The position numbers and the translations under genes are program-made. Below the pieces are notes generated by a model. The model had not been told where the DNA came from, made no database searches, and saw only the letters and a program-made list of their open reading frames with translations. Shown one piece after another: positions 11,934-24,391 of a stretch of DNA of 33,387 nt; within the stretch, counting starts at the first letter, position 1, and each line of letters begins with the position of its first letter. Source of the DNA: Campylobacterota bacterium (GTDB taxonomy: Bacteria; Campylobacterota; Campylobacteria; Campylobacterales; Arcobacteraceae); assembly GCA_003643835.1 (NCBI GenBank), contig QMKX01000016.1, positions 1-33,387 of the forward strand, given 5' to 3'.

Positions 11934-12297
11934 GGGCTAGACATGGTTTCGACTATATTAACTCGATATGAGTAGCATGTTCGTGTGAGTTACGACAAAA
12001 ACTCAAAAATTTTAGACGCAAATAATACAAATTATTCTCCAGCTTTCGCTAAAGTAGCGTAAGTTTAATTTTTGGAGCCAGCTTTTATGTGTAGCTATCG
12101 CATATATTTTGGGTTGGTCATAGTCTGATAGCTTGTTGTGTAGGTGTTGGTCTCATCTATACAAGACACCCTTGACCTTTGTTTGTATGGCATTTGGAAG
12201 CTTCGCTGCACAAGACGAGATATAAGCTTTGCTAAGCATGTAGAAGCTTGTGTTAGGTTGGTTTAGGACTGGGGTTCGATCCCCCACTGGTCCACCA
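11934..12297 (+). ncRNA. ssrA: tmRNA (ssrA), tag ANNTNYSPAFAKVA
   Basis: The tRNA-like ends pair: GGGCTAG at 11934-11940 with CTGGTCC at 12287-12293, followed by an encoded CCA (12295-12297) and a T arm GGGTTCGATCCCC. The resume codon GCA at 12018 opens the frame GCA-AAT-AAT-ACA...GTA-GCG-TAA (12018-12062), encoding ANNTNYSPAFAKVA, close to the known Campylobacter ANNVKFAPAYAKAA and Helicobacter tags. The length of 364 bases fits a standard one-piece tmRNA. It rescues stalled ribosomes together with SmpB. Confidence 0.96.
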
Positions 12298-13903: not shown

Positions 13904-13971
13904 TTTTATAATCTTTAGATATCATAACCTATGTTCCAGATATCTATCCTCAAAAACTTTGTCAAGTCTTA
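13904..13971 (+). pseudogene. Orphan 5' end of a type IIG enzyme gene
   Basis: This stretch matches 16101-16168, the promoter-proximal region and first 14 codons of the intact type IIG gene: TTTTATAATCTTT, then ATG (13931) and MFQISILKNFVKSY. After that it diverges into the hairpin repeat (copy 2). It is a remnant of a second copy of the same restriction-modification gene. Confidence 0.75.
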
Positions 13972-14218: not shown

Positions 14219-15379
14219 ATGTATAAAGAAATATCAATAAACTATAAAAATAATCTCAATCATCAGGATATATCTACAATAAAACAATTTAACAATTCAT
14301 TCGATGAAAATGAGGTTAAAATTGATTATATTGACAATAAAATTAAGATTATGTTAAAAGAGATCGATATAAATAAACTGAAAAATATTATAAAAGAACC
14401 CTCAAACAATACAAATAAAGATATTTATGATGATATTTTAAAATCTATTGAAGGTGTCAAGAGTTATGGTCTAAAAGGTAACAAGCGAAAATATGTAGAC
14501 TACAACAAAGAGAGAAAAGTAACAAACAGGAAAGAAAAAGAACTAAAAAGAAATCAATACTATTATGCTAAAGATAACCAATTTTCGAAAACAATAAACT
14601 CGCTTCCAGAAAAATATACAAATAAAATAATAGTAGGGGACAGCAAGCAAATTCTATCGAATATTCCAGATAACTCTATAGATATAATTTTCACATCCCC
14701 ACCATACAATTTTGGACTTGACTACGCAAACAATCAAGATGATGAACACTGGGAAGATTATTTTGAAAAGCTTTTTTCAATTTTCAAAGAGTGTATAAGA
14801 GTATTGAAGTATGGAGGTAGAATCATTGTAAATGTTCAGCCGCTATTTTCTGACTATGTACCCAGCCATCATCTTATCAGTAATTTTTTTATAAAAGAAA
14901 AACTTATCTGGAAAGGCGAAATACTTTGGGAAAAAAATAATTACAACTGTAAGTATACAGCATGGGGTAGTTGGAAGAGTCCGAGCAATCCATATTTAAA
15001 ATACACTTGGGAGTTTATAGAGGTATTTTGTAAAGGCGAAATGAAGAAAGTTGGAAACAAAGATGATATAAGCATATCTGCTGATGAGTTTAAAAAATGG
15101 GTTGTAGCAAAATGGTCAATAGCTCCAGAAAGAAATATGAAAAAATATGACCATCCAGCTATGTTTCCTGAAGAGTTAGTAGATAGAGTTTTGAAGCTTT
15201 TTAGTTATGAAGGCGATATTGTGTTGGATCCATTTAATGGAGTCGGCACTACAACAGCGGTGGCAAAAAAACTCAATAGAAATTATATGGGTATTGATAT
15301 ATCAAGTGAGTATTGCAAAATTGCCCAAGAAAGAATCAAAAACATAAAGGGCGAAGTTGGGTTGTTTGCAGATGAATAA
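14219..15379 (+). CDS. Type II DNA methyltransferase (N6-adenine or N4-cytosine, beta class)
   Basis: 386 residues. The catalytic motif IV TSPPYN is at 159-164 and the S-adenosylmethionine motif I LDPFNGVGTTTAVA at 336-349; this order (IV before I) defines the beta class. TSPPYN occurs in both N4-cytosine and some N6-adenine enzymes, so the base methylated is open. About 130 extra N-terminal residues rich in lysine and asparagine precede the core and may help recognise DNA. The endonuclease gene overlaps its end by eight bases, so this is a type II restriction-modification operon and the methylase protects the host. It begins at ATG 14219 after AGAGGT. Its AT-rich composition suggests horizontal transfer. 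Confidence 0.9.
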   Translation: MYKEISINYKNNLNHQDISTIKQFNNSFDENEVKIDYIDNKIKIMLKEIDINKLKNIIKEPSNNTNKDIYDDILKSIEGVKSYGLKGNKRKYVDYNKERKVTNRKEKELKRNQYYYAKDNQFSKTINSLPEKYTNKIIVGDSKQILSNIPDNSIDIIFTSPPYNFGLDYANNQDDEHWEDYFEKLFSIFKECIRVLKYGGRIIVNVQPLFSDYVPSHHLISNFFIKEKLIWKGEILWEKNNYNCKYTAWGSWKSPSNPYLKYTWEFIEVFCKGEMKKVGNKDDISISADEFKKWVVAKWSIAPERNMKKYDHPAMFPEELVDRVLKLFSYEGDIVLDPFNGVGTTTAVAKKLNRNYMGIDISSEYCKIAQERIKNIKGEVGLFADE

Positions 15380-16082
15380 AATGGACAGAAAAATAAAAGA
15401 ACTCATAGGAGACTACAATAGTGTAGTGAAAGTTATAGATAAAGATGCCAAAGATAGCGATGATAGATCGTATGGCGGTATGATACGAAGTGTCAAAGGA
15501 AAGTTGCAAGAACATATAACTGAAGAGATAGTCAAAGTAGCTTGGGAAGATATTGGTGGCTGCGAGGATAGAATAAATATAAATTCTAAAAAACAACAAA
15601 TCCATATTTTAAAAGATTATGTCAAGGCAATAGAAAATAATGATATCAAAAAATATATACTATCCAACATAGATGAATATTATTATGGATTAAGTGTAGA
15701 TAAGCAAGTATTTATTGATGGTGATATGGTGATAGGCATAGAGTGTAAATCATACACAGAAAATGCTATGATAAAAAGAATATTGGTTGATTTTAGTTTA
15801 TTGAAAACTATATATCCAAAACTACACTGTTATCTTTTTCAGTTAGAAAGCCAACTCGGAGGTGACTATAGCGATACTAATAACAGATCATTGGGTAGCA
15901 CTTCAACACATACATTGATGTCTTACTTTAAAGATACGAAACTAAATATAATCACATTTTTAAAAGGTGAAAGAAAAGTTGATAGGCCAATACACAAACC
16001 CGGTTTTTTCAAACCTCTAAAAAAGAACGAGATAAAAAAAGCAATCACACAAATACAAAATGATCTAAAACAATATCTGTGA
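15372..16082 (+). CDS. Type II restriction endonuclease (PD-(D/E)XK type)
   Basis: 236 residues from ATG 15372 (MNKMDRKIKELIGDYN), overlapping the methyltransferase end; a second ATG at 15381 is an alternative, and the track start at TTG 15357 is less likely. The central DKQVFIDGDMVIGIECKSYTEN fits a PD-(D/E)XK nuclease core, with D in the first strand and E-C-K in the second, followed by QLESQLGGDY. The context beside a cognate methylase makes it the cutting partner. The recognition sequence cannot be read from the protein, and I cannot name a characterised homologue. Confidence 0.8.
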   Translation: MNKMDRKIKELIGDYNSVVKVIDKDAKDSDDRSYGGMIRSVKGKLQEHITEEIVKVAWEDIGGCEDRININSKKQQIHILKDYVKAIENNDIKKYILSNIDEYYYGLSVDKQVFIDGDMVIGIECKSYTENAMIKRILVDFSLLKTIYPKLHCYLFQLESQLGGDYSDTNNRSLGSTSTHTLMSYFKDTKLNIITFLKGERKVDRPIHKPGFFKPLKKNEIKKAITQIQNDLKQYL

Positions 16083-16128
16083 TATAAACATGTTTGAATT
16101 ATTTTATAATCTTTGGATATTATAGCCC

Positions 16129-18945
16129 ATGTTCCAGATATCCATACTCAAAAACTTTGTCAAGTCCTACAGCTCACCACCAAATGAGAAAATAGACACA
16201 ATCCACAAGCTTGTCACCAAACCATACATAGCAGAAGATGCCAATGGTGCCGAATACATAACCTTGCTATCACAGCTACTAAACTGGTCAAATATATCCA
16301 GAGAGGTCAAAAACACCACTGACATGAAAAAAGCAGATGGTGTAGTATATGACAAACACGACAACCCTATAGCGATAATCGAGCTAAAAAGTAGCGACAA
16401 AAATATCTCAAACACAGACACTATAGCCCAAGCATTTCGCTACAAAAACGAAAAACCAACTTGCAAAGTAGTGATAATATCCAACTTCAAACAGCTAGAC
16501 ATATATAGCGATAGTAGTGACAAGTGCTTTCGCTTTGATATGACCGATAGACAAAACTACAAGACACTATATGCCCTGCTATGCCAAAGCTCCTTAGACA
16601 CAGGGCATATAAGTAGGCTAAAAGCGATATCCAAGTCCCAAGAGCAGATCACCAAAGAGGTATATAGGTTATACAGTAGCTTCCGCCTACAGCTTATCAA
16701 CAATCTTATAGCCAACAACCCAAACCAAACCAAAGAGCAACTACTAGCACACTCTGTCAAGCTACTAGACAGATATATGTTTGTTTTATTTGCCGAGGAT
16801 AGAGGGCTAATACCAGCAAACAGCATAGACAAGATCATAGCTCAATACGAGACAGCCAAAGACGGATGGGACGAGGCGAGACCGCTTTACTATTACTACA
16901 AAAAGTATTTTGAGTTTATAGACATAGGCAATCCATCGCTGGATATACCACGATACAACGGCAACTTGTTCAAGCCAGATGTAGAGCTAGACAACCTAAA
17001 TATAGATGATAGTATCATCAAGGAGGATTTGTCAAAGCTATCTGCATATGATTTTAGTGACGACGTAGATGTAGAAGTTTTGGGACATATATTTGAACAA
17101 TCATTAAACGACTTAGAACAGATAAAAGAGTCGCTCATAGCCACCCATACAGTCGTAGATACTAGAAAAAAGGACGGAGTGTATTATACTCCTAAGTTTA
17201 TCACGAGATATATCATAGAACACACCATAGGGACACTATGCTATGAACGCAAACTCTCACTAGACCTACTGCAACCCATGAGCGACACCGCTACGAAAAA
17301 ACAGAAGCAAACCAAACTAGCAAACCTCAAGCTATACAAGAGCTACATAGAAAACCTAAAGATAGTTGACCCTGCTTGTGGTAGTGGGGCATTTCTAAAT
17401 ATGGCATATCGCTACTTGCTAGAGGAACACCAATATATCCAAACCCTACAAGCCAAAGCAGGGGCAGGACTACTAGATATGCACCACATAGACAAAAGTA
17501 TCATAGAAAACAACCTATACGGAGTAGATATCAACACCGCCTCAGTGGGCATAGCCAAGCTATCACTGTGGCTACAGACTGCCAAACGAGATAGACCACT
17601 GAGCGATCTCATGCACAATATAATCTGTGCCAACTCTTTGACTGCAAACTGGAGCGAACTGTTTCCACAGATTATGGCAGATGGTGGCTTTACTAAAGAA
17701 ACCTCGGCAAAGCCGACCGCATCTGCTGGTTTTGATGTGGTGATAGGCAATCCGCCGTATGGAGCAGCATTTTCAACAGAAGACAAAAACAACTTAAAAG
17801 AGATTTACAAAACAATACATAAAGGCAAGTTTGATAGTTATTATTATTTTATAAAAAGGGGAGTTGATATTTTGAAGCAAGATGGACTACTCGGCTATAT
17901 TGTGCCAGACACTTGGACTTCGCTACAACAAACAGAAAAACTAAGAAAATTTATTTTAGATAATAATATTTTAGCATTAGAAAAATATAATTTTAAAGTA
18001 TTTGAAGATGCAAATGTAGATACAATCAGCATAATAATAGAAAAAGCAAACAAGTTAAACGAAAAAATAAATATTACTATCGTAAACAAGGATTTTGAGA
18101 AACAAGCAAAGCAAGTTTCTCAAAATAGATTTTTAAAAAATGATAGTTATATTTTCAATTATCAAATTAGCGAAAATGATGTAAATATATTATCCAAAAT
18201 AAAAAAAGATAAATTACAGATAAAAGATTTTTGTGAGTGGAGTCAGGGGCTAATTCCTTATGATAAATATACTGGAATGTCAAAAGACATGATTAAAAAT
18301 AGGGTTTATCATTCTGACTATAAAAAAGATAAAACTTACAAGGAAGAATTGGCAGGAAAAGATATAAGCAAATATGATTTACAATGGAACGGCAATAACT
18401 GGATAAGCTATGGAGACTGGCTAGCATCACCAAGGAAACAAAAGTTTTTTACAAGTCCTAGAATTTTAGTCCAAAGGATAAGAAATCCAAGATTAAAAAT
18501 AAGAATAGTTGCTACATATACAGAGGAAGAATATTATAATAATCCAGCGTTAAGCAACTTTATAAGTCTAGAAAATTCAAATATAGACTTAAAGTTTATT
18601 TTGGCAATATTAAATTCAAAAATGATAAATTGGATTTATACAAAAAGCTTCACAGATGTAAATATCAAACCAACTGATTTAGAAAAACTACCAATCCCAG
18701 ATATATCAAAAGAGAAACAAAAACCATTTATAGATTTAGTAGATACCATCATAGACACAAAAGAGAAAACTAGAAAATACAACAAGCACTTCGATAGTTT
18801 AAATGCAGTTCAGAGAATAGAGATACAAGAAGAGATTGAGAAGTTGGAGGGTTTAGTTTTGAGTAGTATTGACGAGATTGATAGTTTGGTTTATGGGTTG
18901 TATGGGTTGAGTAGTGATGAAGTTAAGATTGTTGAGGGCAAATAA
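16129..18945 (+). CDS. Type IIG restriction-modification enzyme (Eco57I-like single chain)
   Basis: 938 residues combining nuclease, methylase and target recognition. The N-terminal PD-(D/E)XK domain has KKADGVVYDKHDNPIAIIELKS (D70, E85, K87). A helical linker follows (about 150-350), then the methylase with motif I VDPACGSGAF (413-422), the YGVDIN acidic loop, and motif IV NPPY (541-544, adenine type). From about residue 550 the target-recognition part is much more AT-rich than the first half, and the last 60 residues (EKLEGLVLSSIDEIDSLVYG) form a coiled tail. It should cut and methylate at one site using S-adenosylmethionine. Orphan copies of its start (13904) and end (19807) flank the locus. 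Confidence 0.92.
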   Translation: MFQISILKNFVKSYSSPPNEKIDTIHKLVTKPYIAEDANGAEYITLLSQLLNWSNISREVKNTTDMKKADGVVYDKHDNPIAIIELKSSDKNISNTDTIAQAFRYKNEKPTCKVVIISNFKQLDIYSDSSDKCFRFDMTDRQNYKTLYALLCQSSLDTGHISRLKAISKSQEQITKEVYRLYSSFRLQLINNLIANNPNQTKEQLLAHSVKLLDRYMFVLFAEDRGLIPANSIDKIIAQYETAKDGWDEARPLYYYYKKYFEFIDIGNPSLDIPRYNGNLFKPDVELDNLNIDDSIIKEDLSKLSAYDFSDDVDVEVLGHIFEQSLNDLEQIKESLIATHTVVDTRKKDGVYYTPKFITRYIIEHTIGTLCYERKLSLDLLQPMSDTATKKQKQTKLANLKLYKSYIENLKIVDPACGSGAFLNMAYRYLLEEHQYIQTLQAKAGAGLLDMHHIDKSIIENNLYGVDINTASVGIAKLSLWLQTAKRDRPLSDLMHNIICANSLTANWSELFPQIMADGGFTKETSAKPTASAGFDVVIGNPPYGAAFSTEDKNNLKEIYKTIHKGKFDSYYYFIKRGVDILKQDGLLGYIVPDTWTSLQQTEKLRKFILDNNILALEKYNFKVFEDANVDTISIIIEKANKLNEKINITIVNKDFEKQAKQVSQNRFLKNDSYIFNYQISENDVNILSKIKKDKLQIKDFCEWSQGLIPYDKYTGMSKDMIKNRVYHSDYKKDKTYKEELAGKDISKYDLQWNGNNWISYGDWLASPRKQKFFTSPRILVQRIRNPRLKIRIVATYTEEEYYNNPALSNFISLENSNIDLKFILAILNSKMINWIYTKSFTDVNIKPTDLEKLPIPDISKEKQKPFIDLVDTIIDTKEKTRKYNKHFDSLNAVQRIEIQEEIEKLEGLVLSSIDEIDSLVYGLYGLSSDEVKIVEGK

Positions 18946-18950
18946 ACTAA

Positions 18951-19736
18951 ATGAAAATACTTGATTGGCGTAATCATAACCAAAGAATAAATATCACCAA
19001 TAGCTTTATAAGTTCAAAAGTACTTCGAGATATTTCTTGTTCTGGAGCCGAGTATTTCTATGCAGATGACTTAAGTTGGTTGCCTAACGATTTTGATAAA
19101 ATTTTATTTAGAAAAAATTTTCTAAAATTATATAAAGGAATTAAATGTTTTCATGCATGTTCGCCTGTAAATATAGACAATTATTTGATAAATGGCTTCA
19201 CTGGTGGAAACCATGAAAAGGCTATTGCGATATTTAATAAAATATTTTCTGATATTCCTGATGAGTATAGAAAAAAAGCAATAGTAGAGATTTCTAGATC
19301 CAGAGAAGATGAAGCACTGAAAACATTTTTTTTATGCGATAGTAAGTGTCTTATAAATAAAGACGGGCATTATCTAATTTATGGTAGCGAATATTTAATT
19401 GTATTGGCTGCTAATTTATCTGCTCAAAAAATTTCCACTGAATATTTTAGACAGAGGCTAAAAGGTATTGGAATTCCGACAATAATTGAAGCTGATATAG
19501 ATTTCTCTCTACTAGATAATAAACAAATTGATTATTTGATTGATTACTCTCTTTCAGACTGGGCAAATTATAATATATTTAATAGTCAATTTACACCTTC
19601 AGAAATGTCAATAATCGCAAAACAAAAGCTTCCATCGTCTGTAATAATCAATCATTGGCATCCTGAAAAAATTCATGACCCGTTTAACTGGGGCAAATGG
19701 TATAGTCCAGATAAAACAACCTGTTCCAGTTGTTAG
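18951..19736 (+). CDS. Unrecognised protein between the type IIG gene and an orphan C-terminus
   Basis: 261 residues, ATG 18951 just five bases after the type IIG stop, without a strong ribosome binding site, so probably coupled. The text KGIKCFHACSPVNIDNYLIN with GF after it, then HYLIYGSEYLIVLAANLS and GIPTIIEADIDFSLL, and a C-terminus ending TTCSSC. A histidine motif (FHAC) followed later by YGSEYL loosely recalls the H-Y-E layout of ADP-ribosyltransferase-like folds, but this is only a hint. Its AT-rich composition matches the recognition part of the upstream gene. It is wedged between the enzyme and a leftover enzyme end, so it probably arrived with the island. Confidence 0.65.
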   Translation: MKILDWRNHNQRINITNSFISSKVLRDISCSGAEYFYADDLSWLPNDFDKILFRKNFLKLYKGIKCFHACSPVNIDNYLINGFTGGNHEKAIAIFNKIFSDIPDEYRKKAIVEISRSREDEALKTFFLCDSKCLINKDGHYLIYGSEYLIVLAANLSAQKISTEYFRQRLKGIGIPTIIEADIDFSLLDNKQIDYLIDYSLSDWANYNIFNSQFTPSEMSIIAKQKLPSSVIINHWHPEKIHDPFNWGKWYSPDKTTCSSC

Positions 19737-19785: not shown

Positions 19786-19810
19786 TGCCTCATTCCATCG
19801 TCCAAGATGG
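19786..19810 (+). repeat. Degenerate CATCGTCCACGATG-type repeat
   Basis: TGCCTCATTCCATCGTCCAAGATGG is a decayed copy of the palindromic repeat found in the toxin-antitoxin spacers (24248-24261, 24919-24932). It directly abuts the orphan C-terminus of the type IIG enzyme, so it marks a recombination joint. Confidence 0.55.
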
Positions 19811-19869
19811 TTTATGGGCTGTATTGGTTGAGTGCGGAAGAGAAGCAGATAGTGGAGGGTAGAGAGTAG
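19807..19869 (+). pseudogene. Orphan 3' end of a type IIG enzyme gene
   Basis: Reads VYGLYWLSAEEKQIVEGRE-stop, a divergent copy of the last residues of the intact enzyme (VYGLYGLSSDEVKIVEGK). With the orphan 5' end at 13904 it shows that a second, related enzyme once occupied this locus or that a duplication was partly replaced. Confidence 0.75.
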
Positions 19870-19907
19870 AAACTTGGTGTTTCGTTGTAAATTTTAAGCT
19901 TTTGTGG

Positions 19908-19999
19908 TATAATATTAAGAATACTTGAGAAAATTATTTTTTCTGGTATAAAACGACTATGATATCTATTGATAAATAGTTAGACAAAGAAGGTAAATT
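19908..19999 (+). promoter_or_regulatory. Promoter and structured leader of the HEPN gene
   Basis: TGG-TATAAT (19908-19913) is followed by an 86-base leader with two pairings: AGAAAA/TTTTCT around TTATT (19928-19944) and CTATT/AATAG around GATA (19966-19979). An AAGAAGG ribosome binding site precedes ATG 20000. The same plan, with different bases in the first stem, precedes the gene at 21485. Confidence 0.55.
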
Positions 20000-21169
20000 A
20001 TGAATTTTTTCTTAACAACATATATTTTTCCAATACAACATGAAATAATTTTATCTAATAAATTAAATTTTAAACTAGATAATCCAAGAACAAAAGATGA
20101 AATCAATATCATAAAAGAAAATTTAAAAGTATCATTAGATAGTCCAGATAAAATGTATAAACATAATAAATATATGAGAATACCAATAAATAATATTGAT
20201 GAAAACATGCTATCTATTGAGAAAGCATTACAAAAATTTTATAAAAAATACAAAGATAATAATTATATACATGATTTCTATTTATTAAATAACGATTGTG
20301 ATATTTTAGAACAACTTGCAAAAATGTGGATTATCGCAAGATTTAGTGAAAGTAAAAATCAAAAACTAAAAGAAGAACATGAAACAATAATAAAAATTGG
20401 ACACAAGTACTTAAAAATGTTAGATGACAATCATCCAAAAATACAAAATTCTGATAATCTAATAAATTTTTCATATTTATTATCGGTACTAATCAATAAT
20501 GAAAAAGATGAATATTGCGGAACAGGTTTCATTCTTCATAGTGACATAAATAGACTTCTGGAGCCTATGCTTGATCTACATCTCAACAGCACCGTAATGA
20601 TGTTTTCAATACAGGCATATAGGGAATGCAGTGGCAACAGACAGCCTGAATGGGAAACAAATTTTGAATACATAAAAGATATAATCATTAATAATTCAAA
20701 AAAAATTGAAAAATTATTATCCGGTGATATAAAAGAAAAATTATTATACATTTCAAACTTATTAAAAGAAGCATCAAATACAAGTGATGAAAAATTAAAA
20801 TTGATGTCATATGTTTCTATTTTAGAATTGTTGCTTACACATAATCCTGATGAGCATAAATATAATGTTGAGAATTCTATTGCGAAACAGTTTCAAACAA
20901 AAATTGCAATCTTAGTATATTTACACTTAGATAGAAAAGAAGATTTAAAACAATTAAAAAACAAGTTAAAAATAATTTATAATCAAAGATCAAACATAGC
21001 ACATGGAAATTTTAAAAAATATAAAAACTATGTAGACAGTTTATCCAAAAAAGAAGGAACTGAAGAGTATTTTACTGATTTGATAACTGATACAATTTAT
21101 TTTATAAGAATAATACTATCCGAGTACATTGAAGATGTAGATTTTGTAGATTTTTTAAAAGAAAATTAA
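20000..21169 (+). CDS. HEPN-domain protein, candidate abortive-infection RNase
   Basis: 389 residues. The C-terminal third is helical and contains YNQRSNIAHG, with R330 and H335 in the R-x4-H spacing that is the RNase active-site signature of HEPN proteins; upstream LMSYVSILELLLTH is the typical preceding helix. This layout recalls Apea-type/Abi HEPN proteins, which cut RNA on phage infection. The N-terminal 250 residues (MNFFLTTYIFPIQ) look like a sensing or substrate domain and are not recognised. It lies behind the restriction-modification genes, in a very AT-rich stretch. No antitoxin gene is visible beside it, so the structured leader may matter for control. Confidence 0.7.
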   Translation: MNFFLTTYIFPIQHEIILSNKLNFKLDNPRTKDEINIIKENLKVSLDSPDKMYKHNKYMRIPINNIDENMLSIEKALQKFYKKYKDNNYIHDFYLLNNDCDILEQLAKMWIIARFSESKNQKLKEEHETIIKIGHKYLKMLDDNHPKIQNSDNLINFSYLLSVLINNEKDEYCGTGFILHSDINRLLEPMLDLHLNSTVMMFSIQAYRECSGNRQPEWETNFEYIKDIIINNSKKIEKLLSGDIKEKLLYISNLLKEASNTSDEKLKLMSYVSILELLLTHNPDEHKYNVENSIAKQFQTKIAILVYLHLDRKEDLKQLKNKLKIIYNQRSNIAHGNFKKYKNYVDSLSKKEGTEEYFTDLITDTIYFIRIILSEYIEDVDFVDFLKEN

Positions 21170-21392
21170 AAAATAAGTCAAGATTACTAAAATTAAAATA
21201 TTTGCTTGTTGTGGTTACATGCGATTTGTTAAATATTTCTGTTAATTTTTAACAATATAAAAATATCAAATCAAATACAAGTGATCGCAGCAAAACACCA
21301 AAAATACATTGCCAATTTAAGCGATGAAATGATTATTTGTAGCTATAATAGTCTAAAATTTATATTTTATAGAAAATATAAAGTTTTTATGG

Positions 21393-21484
21393 TATAATGA
21401 TAAAATTACTTAAGAGGTCGTCTCTTTGAGTAAAAATAACTACAATATCTATTGATAAATAGATATAGAAATAAAGGAATTAAA
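21393..21484 (+). promoter_or_regulatory. Promoter and structured leader, second copy
   Basis: TGG-TATAAT (21393-21398) then a leader with AAGAG/CTCTT around GTCGT (21412-21426) and TATCTATT/AATAGATA around GATA (21447-21464), followed by AAAGGA and ATG 21485. It aligns with 19908-19999. The rest of 21170-21392 is AT-rich and has no gene I can support. Confidence 0.55.
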
Positions 21485-21931
21485 ATGAAAACATTTAAGG
21501 ATTACATTGAAGATGACAGCATTGATGATAATGGTATTGATTATATTCTAATTGAAATACCAAAGAAAATTTTTGAAAATCTTAAAATTTCAACAGAGAG
21601 TTATTGGCAAGATTCGTTTTATAAAAACTATAAATACAGAGTTGATGTTGCAACAAATCATACACAGCAAAGACATGTGCATATAGCAAAAAGTAAATAT
21701 ATAAATTCAAAAAATCAACAAGTATCATGGAATATAGATGGCAGCAGACATGACAAAAAATCCTTTAATGCAGCTATTGGCTCAAGCAAAAAAGTTCAAG
21801 ATATTGCAAAACAAGCACTAAGCTTAAACGATACCATTGCTTTGGAATCATGGCAAAAAGAAGAAATGGCATTAGAACATGCAGGTGAAAATACAGAGTA
21901 TAAACCAATTACAATAAAAGTAGCAACATAA
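21485..21931 (+). CDS. Conserved small protein of unknown function (RHVHIA / DGSRHD motifs)
   Basis: 148 residues from ATG 21485 (MKTFKDYIEDDS), with AAAGGA upstream; the upstream TTG at 21452 lies inside the leader and is rejected. The middle shows TNHTQQRHVHIAKSK, then VSWNIDGSRHDKKSFN, a histidine-rich pattern I have seen in small uncharacterised families (possibly DUF6367) often found in accessory regions. The conserved histidines and aspartate might bind metal, but no activity is established. It shares its leader architecture with the HEPN gene upstream, which suggests common control. Confidence 0.6.
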   Translation: MKTFKDYIEDDSIDDNGIDYILIEIPKKIFENLKISTESYWQDSFYKNYKYRVDVATNHTQQRHVHIAKSKYINSKNQQVSWNIDGSRHDKKSFNAAIGSSKKVQDIAKQALSLNDTIALESWQKEEMALEHAGENTEYKPITIKVAT

Positions 21932-21949
21932 CAATTACTAAGAGATATC

Positions 21950-22165
21950 TGCCTCGTTCCCAACGTCCTCATTGGGAATGCATACATGACAAACAACCGA
22001 AATAATAGACAAAACAAGAGAATCGCTTTTGCTTTAGCAAAATGTTTCCTGCAAAAGTAGCCGTGGCGATTTTTTGTGATAACAAAAAAACTTTCTATAA
22101 AACAAGAGAATCGCTTTTTTCGTAGAAAAAATGTTTCCTGTAAAAAGCCATATAGTCAGACTATT
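21950..22165. repeat. Spacer A: palindromic repeat plus hairpin repeats
   Basis: Begins TGCCTCGTTCCCAACGTCCT with a TTCCCAA/TTGGGAA palindrome, then GCATACATGACAAACAACC, a block shared with spacers at 24262 and 24933. After that come two relatives of the 45-bp unit: AGAGAATCGCTTTTGCTTTAG...GTTTCCTG and AGAGAATCGCTTTTTTCG...GTTTCCTG, with TAGCCGTGGCGATTTTT between. No gene is supported in 21932-22270 apart from these and the promoter at 22230. Confidence 0.6.
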
Positions 22166-22225
22166 TGGATAGCAAAGGCACTATTTGTAGCTAAAATGGC
22201 ACAAGATGTCTATAGTGTTAAGTTT

Positions 22226-22246
22226 GTTTGGATATAATACATAAAA
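22226..22246 (+). promoter_or_regulatory. Shared-type promoter of the first toxin-antitoxin pair
   Basis: AAGTTTGTTTGGATATAATAC is nearly identical to promoters before brnT (23672-23692), the CopG gene (24371-24391) and the TMEM43-like gene (25069-25089), with a looser match before the broken antitoxin (AAGTTATTTGCATACAATA). Confidence 0.6.
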
Positions 22247-22270: not shown

Positions 22271-22519
22271 ATGCATAGATTAAATCTAACCATAGACGAA
22301 GCACTGTACGAACAAGCCAGAGCATTTGGTGCAGTCAAGAAAAAGTCAATATCTGCTATGATGAGAGAAAGCTTGACACAATATCTTTCGAAAAACTCAA
22401 ACTCAAACTCAAAAGCCAGCTTGACAATAGAAGCAGACGATGAAAAAGAAGTTTTGGCTATACTGTCAAATGATACATTCACTACAAACAAAGAGTTTAA
22501 AAACAGATACAATCTATGA
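22271..22519 (+). CDS. Antitoxin, ribbon-helix-helix type
   Basis: 82 residues from ATG 22271 (MHRLNLTIDEALYEQARAFG), AAAGGA about ten bases upstream. The opening RLNLTIDEALYEQARA, then KKKSISAMMRESLTQYLS, is the beta-strand plus two helices of a CopG/MetJ-like DNA-binding domain; the C-terminal tail (ILSNDTFTTNKEFKNRYNL) would wrap the toxin. Its stop overlaps the toxin start by four bases (ATGA), as expected. It should repress its own operon. Confidence 0.75.
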   Translation: MHRLNLTIDEALYEQARAFGAVKKKSISAMMRESLTQYLSKNSNSNSKASLTIEADDEKEVLAILSNDTFTTNKEFKNRYNL

Positions 22520-23314: not shown

Positions 23315-23449
23315 AAAACTAGCCGTGGCGATTTTTGCTTTAGCAAAAAAGTTTCTGTGAAAACTAGCCGTGGCGATTTTTGCTTTAGCAAAAAAGTTTC
23401 TGTGAAAACTAGCCGTGGCGATTTTTGCTTTAGCAAAAAAGTTTCTGTG
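23315..23449. repeat. Three tandem 45-bp repeats with internal hairpin
   Basis: Three identical units (23315-23359, 23360-23404, 23405-23449), each starting AAAACTAGCCGTGGCG and containing TTTTTGCT-TT-AGCAAAAA. Since 45 is a multiple of three, each unit is open in several frames, which creates spurious repeat ORFs on both strands. Diverged single copies lie at 22010-22140 and within the mini-element at 369-470. There are no variable spacers, so this is not a CRISPR array. Confidence 0.9.
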
Positions 23450-23537
23450 AAAAAGCTAAACTCCTTTTATGCTATCGATGGTTGTGGTGATGGTTTGTTT
23501 GAAAACAAAAGCATACAATCTATCAAGTCAAATAAGT

Positions 23538-23648: not shown

Positions 23649-23671
23649 ATTTTTATAAGTTTGGTTATTGT

Positions 23672-23692
23672 AAGTTTATTTGGATATAATAC
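23672..23692 (+). promoter_or_regulatory. Shared-type promoter of brnTA
   Basis: AAGTTTATTTGGATATAATAC ends five bases before ATG 23697, so if it is the -10 box the brnT message is nearly leaderless. The 85 bases around it are homologous to 24300-24391. Confidence 0.55.
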
Positions 23693-24235: not shown

Positions 24236-24391
24236 ACTCGCCCCCCCCATCGTCCACGATGATTATGCGGACATGACAAATAACCAAAACAACACACAAA
24301 AAGCTACACCACAAGCCAAGCAAAAGCAAAAATTCTATTTGCCTGTAAATTTGTATCAATTTGTTGCTATAAGTTTATTTGGATACAATAC
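24236..24391 (+). repeat. Spacer D: palindrome, conserved block and promoter
   Basis: A run of eight C (24241-24248) leads into CATCGTCCACGATG (24248-24261), then ATTATGCGGACATGACAAAT, then CACACAAAAAGCTACACC and the promoter AAGTTTATTTGGATACAATAC (24371-24391). It is homologous along most of its length to 24919-25089, and its second half to 23600-23692. Confidence 0.65.

What the first reader, a model, noticed from the sequence alone, without database searches (positions are those of the whole stretch)
19908..21484. Two covarying structured leaders before a HEPN protein and an unknown protein
Both genes are preceded by TGGTATAAT, an 86-base leader with a first stem of different sequence but preserved pairing (AGAAAA/TTTTCT versus AAGAG/CTCTT), and a nearly identical second element CTATTGATAAATAG. 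Different bases with the same pairing argue for RNA structure. HEPN toxins need control and no antitoxin ORF is visible, so an RNA leader, or a repressor binding the CTATT/AATAG palindrome, could hold both genes together as one undescribed defence unit.
Basis: partly seen in the sequence, partly recalled or inferred. Interest (0 to 1): 0.6.

Follow-up and report, generated by a model that had tools for sequence, protein, structure and literature searches.

The report
Twin hairpin leaders on two genes
Two unrelated neighbouring genes in a defence-gene region of a Campylobacterota-type bacterium carry the same kind of start: an ordinary promoter, a hairpin at the very 5' end of the RNA and a shared 18-base motif; this most likely protects or tunes both messenger RNAs, and nothing found shows that the two genes form a new defence system.

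Summary
ORFs 20000-21169 and 21485-21931 each follow an 86-nt leader. The leaders are homologous to each other (0 of 3000 shuffles score as high), but only from the promoter to the start codon. They share an identical 18-mer, ATATCTATTGATAAATAG. Both have a first hairpin that kept its pairing despite 13 substitutions in 34 columns (neutral-divergence simulations P about 0.0015-0.03). The other claims do not hold. TGGTATAAT is the normal sigma70 extended -10 box of this phylum. The leader has no credible further copy in this genome, 200 relatives, the GTDB contigs or viral contigs. The 148-aa protein is Pfam DUF6367, found elsewhere without this leader or this HEPN-like partner. The predicted +1 falls 0-1 nt before hairpin 1 in both leaders. 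The genome encodes RNase J and an RppH-like hydrolase; no RNase E/G was detected. Best reading: a duplicated promoter-5'UTR segment with a 5'-terminal hairpin that stabilises mRNA (precedents ompA, H. pylori vacA), plus a short AU hairpin of unknown role. A shared operator, or feedback by the HEPN-like protein on its own leader, is not excluded. 'HEPN' rests on one RX4H motif. Interest is low to moderate.

The parts
19905..19913 (+). extended -10 box TGGTATAAT, promoter of leader 1
   Evidence: sequence; consensus scan; ordinary Campylobacterota sigma70 motif TGxTATAAT (PMC3656092)
19921..19949 (+). leader 1, hairpin 1 (5'-terminal stem-loop; predicted +1 at 19920/19921)
   Evidence: fold; position relative to -10 box
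19962..19979 (+). 18-nt block ATATCTATTGATAAATAG identical in both leaders; CTATT-GATA-AATAG inverted repeat (hairpin 2 or operator)
   Evidence: alignment; pattern search
19987..19993 (+). likely Shine-Dalgarno AAGAAGG, outside both hairpins
   Evidence: sequence
20000..21169 (+). 389-aa protein with an RX4H motif (RSNIAH, residues 330-335); HEPN-like, tentative
   Evidence: translation; motif; weak MauJ match E 0.0055 on the C-terminal part, below cut-off
21390..21398 (+). extended -10 box TGGTATAAT, promoter of leader 2
   Evidence: sequence
21406..21433 (+). leader 2, hairpin 1 (5'-terminal stem-loop; predicted +1 at 21405)
   Evidence: fold
21445..21462 (+). second copy of the 18-nt block; the inverted repeat extends to 21466 here
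21473..21478 (+). likely Shine-Dalgarno AAAGGA, outside both hairpins
   Evidence: sequence
21485..21931 (+). 148-aa DUF6367 family protein (PF19894)
   Evidence: Pfam E 3.1e-38; relatives

Best explanation
The two leaders are copies of one promoter-5'UTR segment that was duplicated or captured in front of two unrelated genes. The promoter is an ordinary sigma70 extended -10 type. Transcription probably starts 0-1 nt before hairpin 1, so the mRNA's 5' end is tucked into a stem. That should block the RppH-like hydrolase and RNase J, which attack unpaired 5' ends, and so keep both mRNAs long-lived and similarly expressed. The short AU hairpin with its invariant 18-mer sits before an exposed Shine-Dalgarno and adds a sequence-specific function that I cannot name. 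Shown: homology, structure, its position relative to the -10 box, and the nuclease set of the host. Inferred: the transcription start, the stabilising effect and the duplication.
For: Leader homology is significant and confined to promoter-5'UTR. Both leaders fold with z -2.2 to -3.8. Stem-1 pairing is kept through 13/34 substitutions (neutral simulations P 0.0015-0.03). The stem starts about 8 nt after the -10 box in both. Only 3 of 18 comparable TGnTATAAT sites in this genome have a hairpin of -7 kcal/mol or better there, and two of those are these leaders. The host has RNase J (TIGR00649, 640 bits) and an RppH-like Nudix protein (111.5 bits against a cut-off of 116), and no RNase E/G was detected. 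B. subtilis RppH needs at least two unpaired 5' nt (PMC3997798). A 5'UTR stem-loop lengthens vacA mRNA half-life in H. pylori (PMC4843948).
Against: No transcript data exist for this locus. The 18-nt identity in element 2 is more sequence conservation than a pure stabiliser needs. Only two sequences are available, so covariation by itself is not significant. No orthologous leader was found elsewhere to show conservation over time.
Confidence: 0.45

Rival explanations
1. The CTATT-GATA-AATAG inverted repeat is a DNA operator at about +42 to +63, bound by a dimeric repressor that blocks transcription of both genes.
For: It is an 18-bp identical, nearly palindromic block in an otherwise 56-65% identical leader. 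In leader 2 the palindrome extends to 9-bp arms.
Against: No other site in the genome except one inside a coding gene and a weaker, probably chance, match at up to 2 mismatches. The right flank differs in leader 1 (AATAGTTA against AATAGATA). No repressor gene is evident next to the two genes, and the nearest candidate DNA-binding protein (22271-22516, CcdA-like) has no such site upstream. It does not explain stem 1.
Confidence: 0.2
2. The shared leader is a feedback target: the HEPN-like protein, if an RNase, binds or cuts its own leader and that of the DUF6367 mRNA, limiting its own synthesis and coupling both genes.
For: RX4H motif; both leaders share structure plus an invariant motif; an RNase that autoregulates through a 5'UTR stem-loop is known (RNase E on the rne leader, cited in PMC3997798).
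Against: RNase activity is unshown and the HEPN assignment is weak. DUF6367 occurs elsewhere without a relative of this protein. The single-sequence structure model was useless (pLDDT 39).
Confidence: 0.12
3. Plain common descent without present function: a promoter segment was duplicated and the leaders are drifting; structure and 18-mer are leftovers.
For: Other intergenic segments in this island are also repeated before different genes (D4, D7, D12). No copies in other genomes.
Against: Random divergence of leader 1 at the observed rate rarely keeps a hairpin as stable as leader 2 (0.15-1.1% of simulations; 3.3% in the reverse direction). An 18-nt identical run is unlikely at about 60-65% identity (about 1%, my estimate).
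Confidence: 0.18

Closest known systems
5'-terminal mRNA-stabilising stem-loops (E. coli ompA and papA; H. pylori vacA 5'UTR)
   Same: Stem-loop at or near the 5' end of the transcript, ahead of a free Shine-Dalgarno; vacA is from the same phylum and has no RNase E (PMC4843948); ompA has two protective elements (cited in PMC3997798).
   Different: Here two different genes share a homologous leader with an invariant 18-mer. No half-life has been measured, and the sequence is unrelated to any Rfam family.
Type III toxin-antitoxin systems (RNA antitoxin upstream of an RNase toxin, e.g. ToxIN)
   Same: Structured RNA segment upstream of a putative RNase gene.
   Different: No tandem-repeat RNA and no terminator between RNA and gene; the putative toxin is HEPN-like, not ToxN-like; the second gene is unrelated to the first yet has the same leader.
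HEPN-MNT type II toxin-antitoxin modules
   Same: A HEPN-like protein in a defence-gene neighbourhood.
   Different: No nucleotidyltransferase partner next to it; the next gene is DUF6367 with its own promoter.
DUF6367 (PF19894)
   Same: The 148-aa protein is a clear member (131 bits against a cut-off of 25).
   Different: Elsewhere it stands alone or in an attC-bearing array, next to varied defence genes, and without this leader.

Membership tests
5'-terminal stabilising stem-loop leader | stable hairpin beginning within about 0-2 nt of the transcription start | tested here: inconclusive
   Predicted +1 (7-8 nt after the -10 box) is 0-1 nt before the stem in both; the start itself is not mapped.
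5'-terminal stabilising stem-loop leader | pairing, not sequence, is kept | tested here: met
   13/34 substitutions, hairpin kept; P 0.0015-0.03 in simulations; only two sequences.
5'-terminal stabilising stem-loop leader | disrupting the stem shortens mRNA half-life | not testable with these tools
   needs a rifampicin decay assay
Type III toxin-antitoxin | tandem RNA repeats followed by an attenuating terminator before the toxin ORF | tested here: not met
   no repeat array before the gene, no + strand terminator found in the scanned region
HEPN-MNT toxin-antitoxin | adjacent MNT nucleotidyltransferase gene | tested here: not met
   Neighbours are a 261-aa protein of no known family and DUF6367
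HEPN ribonuclease | RX4-6H motif in an alpha-helical domain | tested here: inconclusive
   RSNIAH at residues 330-335; no HEPN-family Pfam hit above cut-off; fold not obtained
DUF6367 | match to PF19894 above the curated cut-off | tested here: met
   131.2 bits against 25
Known Rfam RNA family | match at gathering score | tested here: not met
   only tmRNA in the window; leaders give only chance matches

The most novel reading that the evidence does not exclude
The leader is a dedicated cis-acting RNA that the HEPN-like RNase recognises in both mRNAs, so that a nuclease and DUF6367 form a two-gene defence unit controlled by a shared RNA target rather than by a protein antitoxin.
Probability: 0.08. 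Interest if true: 0.65.

Novelty: new member of a known kind. Interest (0 to 1): 0.27.

Why it matters
If real in vivo, it is a compact natural pair for testing how 5'-terminal hairpins protect mRNA in bacteria that use RNase J instead of RNase E, and a case of promoter-leader sharing between unrelated defence-region genes. If the HEPN-like protein acts on the leader, it would be a new way to restrain a toxic nuclease. On present evidence it is mainly a local curiosity with one clean mechanistic prediction.

Tried and rejected
Widespread RNA element: covariance model R1 found only the two window copies at meaningful scores; the next hits in relatives (38 bits and below) carry hairpin 1 or element 2 but not both convincingly, and look like coding sequence or unrelated hairpins. 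Exact leader pattern: 0 hits in GTDB contigs; single chance hits inside genes in viral contigs (and 65/67/68). Regulon in the own genome: no other site except one in a coding gene and one weaker match. Leader peptide: the ATG ORF MISIDK* in leader 1 has no start codon in leader 2. Attenuator: no U-run after the stem. RNA thermometer: the Shine-Dalgarno lies outside the stems. HEPN-DUF6367 unit: a Sulfurimonas contig has DUF6367 next to an Abi_C protein, but in an attC-bearing array and unrelated to this protein. HEPN relatives: none in plasmids, phages, viral contigs or relatives; the G102 hit is a chance N-terminal match. Structures: HEPN-like protein unusable; DUF6367 moderate, no PDB match.

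Full report
Observation. Both genes are preceded by TGGTATAAT (19905-19913 and 21390-21398) and an 86-nt leader. The two leaders are homologous: local alignment score 29 against a shuffled mean of 10.5 (sd 1.9, maximum 21 of 3000). The homology stops at the start codon and is weak upstream of the -10 box; neither 100 nt further upstream nor the coding sequences are similar. An 18-mer, ATATCTATTGATAAATAG, is identical in both.

Structure. Leader 1 folds with z -2.2 (whole leader) or -3.8 (both hairpins), leader 2 with z -3.5 or -3.4. Written as a structural alignment (leader 2 adjusted by removing one bulged T and adding one A after the stem so that the arms align), 12 pairs give 3 two-sided changes, 3 one-sided changes and one mismatch in leader 1. 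With two sequences the pair shuffle is not significant (66/500). A better test is neutral divergence: leader 1 mutated at the observed level keeps a hairpin as stable as that of leader 2 in 0.65% of runs, in 0.15% when only the truly changed positions are randomised, and in 1.1% when the observed bases are permuted among them; in the reverse direction the figure is 3.3%. The second element is sequence-conserved, and its pairing is not tested by covariation.

What is ordinary. TGxTATAAT with an A/T-rich upstream region is the general sigma70 promoter of this phylum (about 89% of mapped C. jejuni promoter regions, PMC3656092); the own genome has 91 near-matches to TTTNNTGGTATAAT against 37 for the reversed control. 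It does not link the two genes. Kinship of the window to Campylobacterota was inferred from gene content and the relatives (for example Sulfurimonas among DUF6367 relatives), not from a named record.

What is less ordinary. With a usual spacing of 7-8 nt, the transcript would begin at 19920/19921 and 21405, that is 0-1 nt before hairpin 1 in both leaders. Among 18 distinct TGnTATAAT sites of this genome only three have a hairpin of -7 kcal/mol or better in that place; two are these leaders. The genome encodes RNase J and an RppH-like hydrolase (just under the curated cut-off), and no RNase E/G was detected. RppH needs unpaired 5' nucleotides (PMC3997798), and a 5'UTR stem-loop lengthens vacA mRNA half-life in H. 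pylori, with RppH/RNase J exclusion proposed (PMC4843948). This makes a 5'-terminal protective hairpin the best-supported role for stem 1. The Shine-Dalgarno sequences are outside both hairpins, there is no terminator tail, and the short ORF in leader 1 is not kept in leader 2, so thermometer, attenuator and leader-peptide ideas are disfavoured.

The two genes. The 148-aa protein is DUF6367. Relatives were found in Acinetobacter and Sphingomonas plasmids and in 11 genome contigs from Campylobacterota, Proteobacteria, Deferribacterales and Bacteroidetes/Chlorobi-group records; one of the latter is probably the same locus as relative G082. Neighbours are often defence genes: DNA methylases, a type I specificity subunit, TIR, Schlafen AlbA_2, Abi_C. 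In the Sulfurimonas contig the gene lies in an array whose spacers look like integron attC sites. None of the loci searched with the leader model has the leader. The 389-aa protein has an RSNIAH motif but no family match above cut-off and no relatives in any set searched. A single-sequence structure prediction failed, so 'HEPN' stays tentative. Nothing shows that the two proteins work together beyond adjacency and the shared leader.

Distribution of the leader. The covariance model found only the two window copies at convincing scores in the own genome and 200 relatives. An exact pattern over the GTDB contigs gave none, and viral contigs gave only chance matches inside genes. Exact patterns would miss diverged copies, so absence is shown only at that sensitivity. 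The element therefore appears local. Duplication or capture of a promoter-leader segment within the island is the simplest origin; other repeated intergenic segments in the same island show that such events happen here.

Verdict. The defence-unit reading is unsupported. Best mechanism: a shared 5'UTR whose 5'-terminal hairpin stabilises both mRNAs, with an extra conserved element that could be a hairpin or operator (0.45). Rivals: operator (0.20), drift after duplication (0.18), HEPN-like nuclease feedback (0.12).

Noticed in passing
window 19808-19870: A 75% copy of the 3' end of the type IIG methyltransferase gene (18887-18938) lies just before the promoter of leader 1, a remnant of recombination or duplication (D8).
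   Followed up: no
window 13904-13971 and 16102-16169: 90% identical 68-nt copies of the start region of the type IIG gene flank the type II restriction-modification pair (14219-16082), as if that pair had been inserted there (D2).
   Followed up: no
window 22053-22101, 23315-23453: A 49-nt repeat (AAAACTAGCCGTGGCGATTTTTGCTTTAGC...) with three perfect tandem copies and a diverged fourth 1.2 kb away (D1).
   Followed up: no
window 22209-22240, 23661-23692, 24360-24391: A promoter-like 32-nt segment (AAGTTTATTTGGATATAATAC) is repeated before three genes or gene pairs, two of them toxin-antitoxin-like (D4).
   Followed up: no
L016:950-2450: Sulfurimonas contig with DUF6367 and an Abi_C protein separated by attC-like hairpins: DUF6367 as a probable integron gene cassette. 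The end of the window's DUF6367 gene (ACATAACAATTACT, about 21926-21939) resembles the left end of such a site.
   Followed up: partly
window 18951-19736: A 261-aa protein with no family match (Pfam, PADLOC, NCBIfam; PHROGs only chance-level) directly after the type IIG enzyme, possibly an accessory or effector gene.
   Followed up: partly
window 11934-12297: tmRNA gene directly upstream of the defence region, a common integration site for islands.
   Followed up: no
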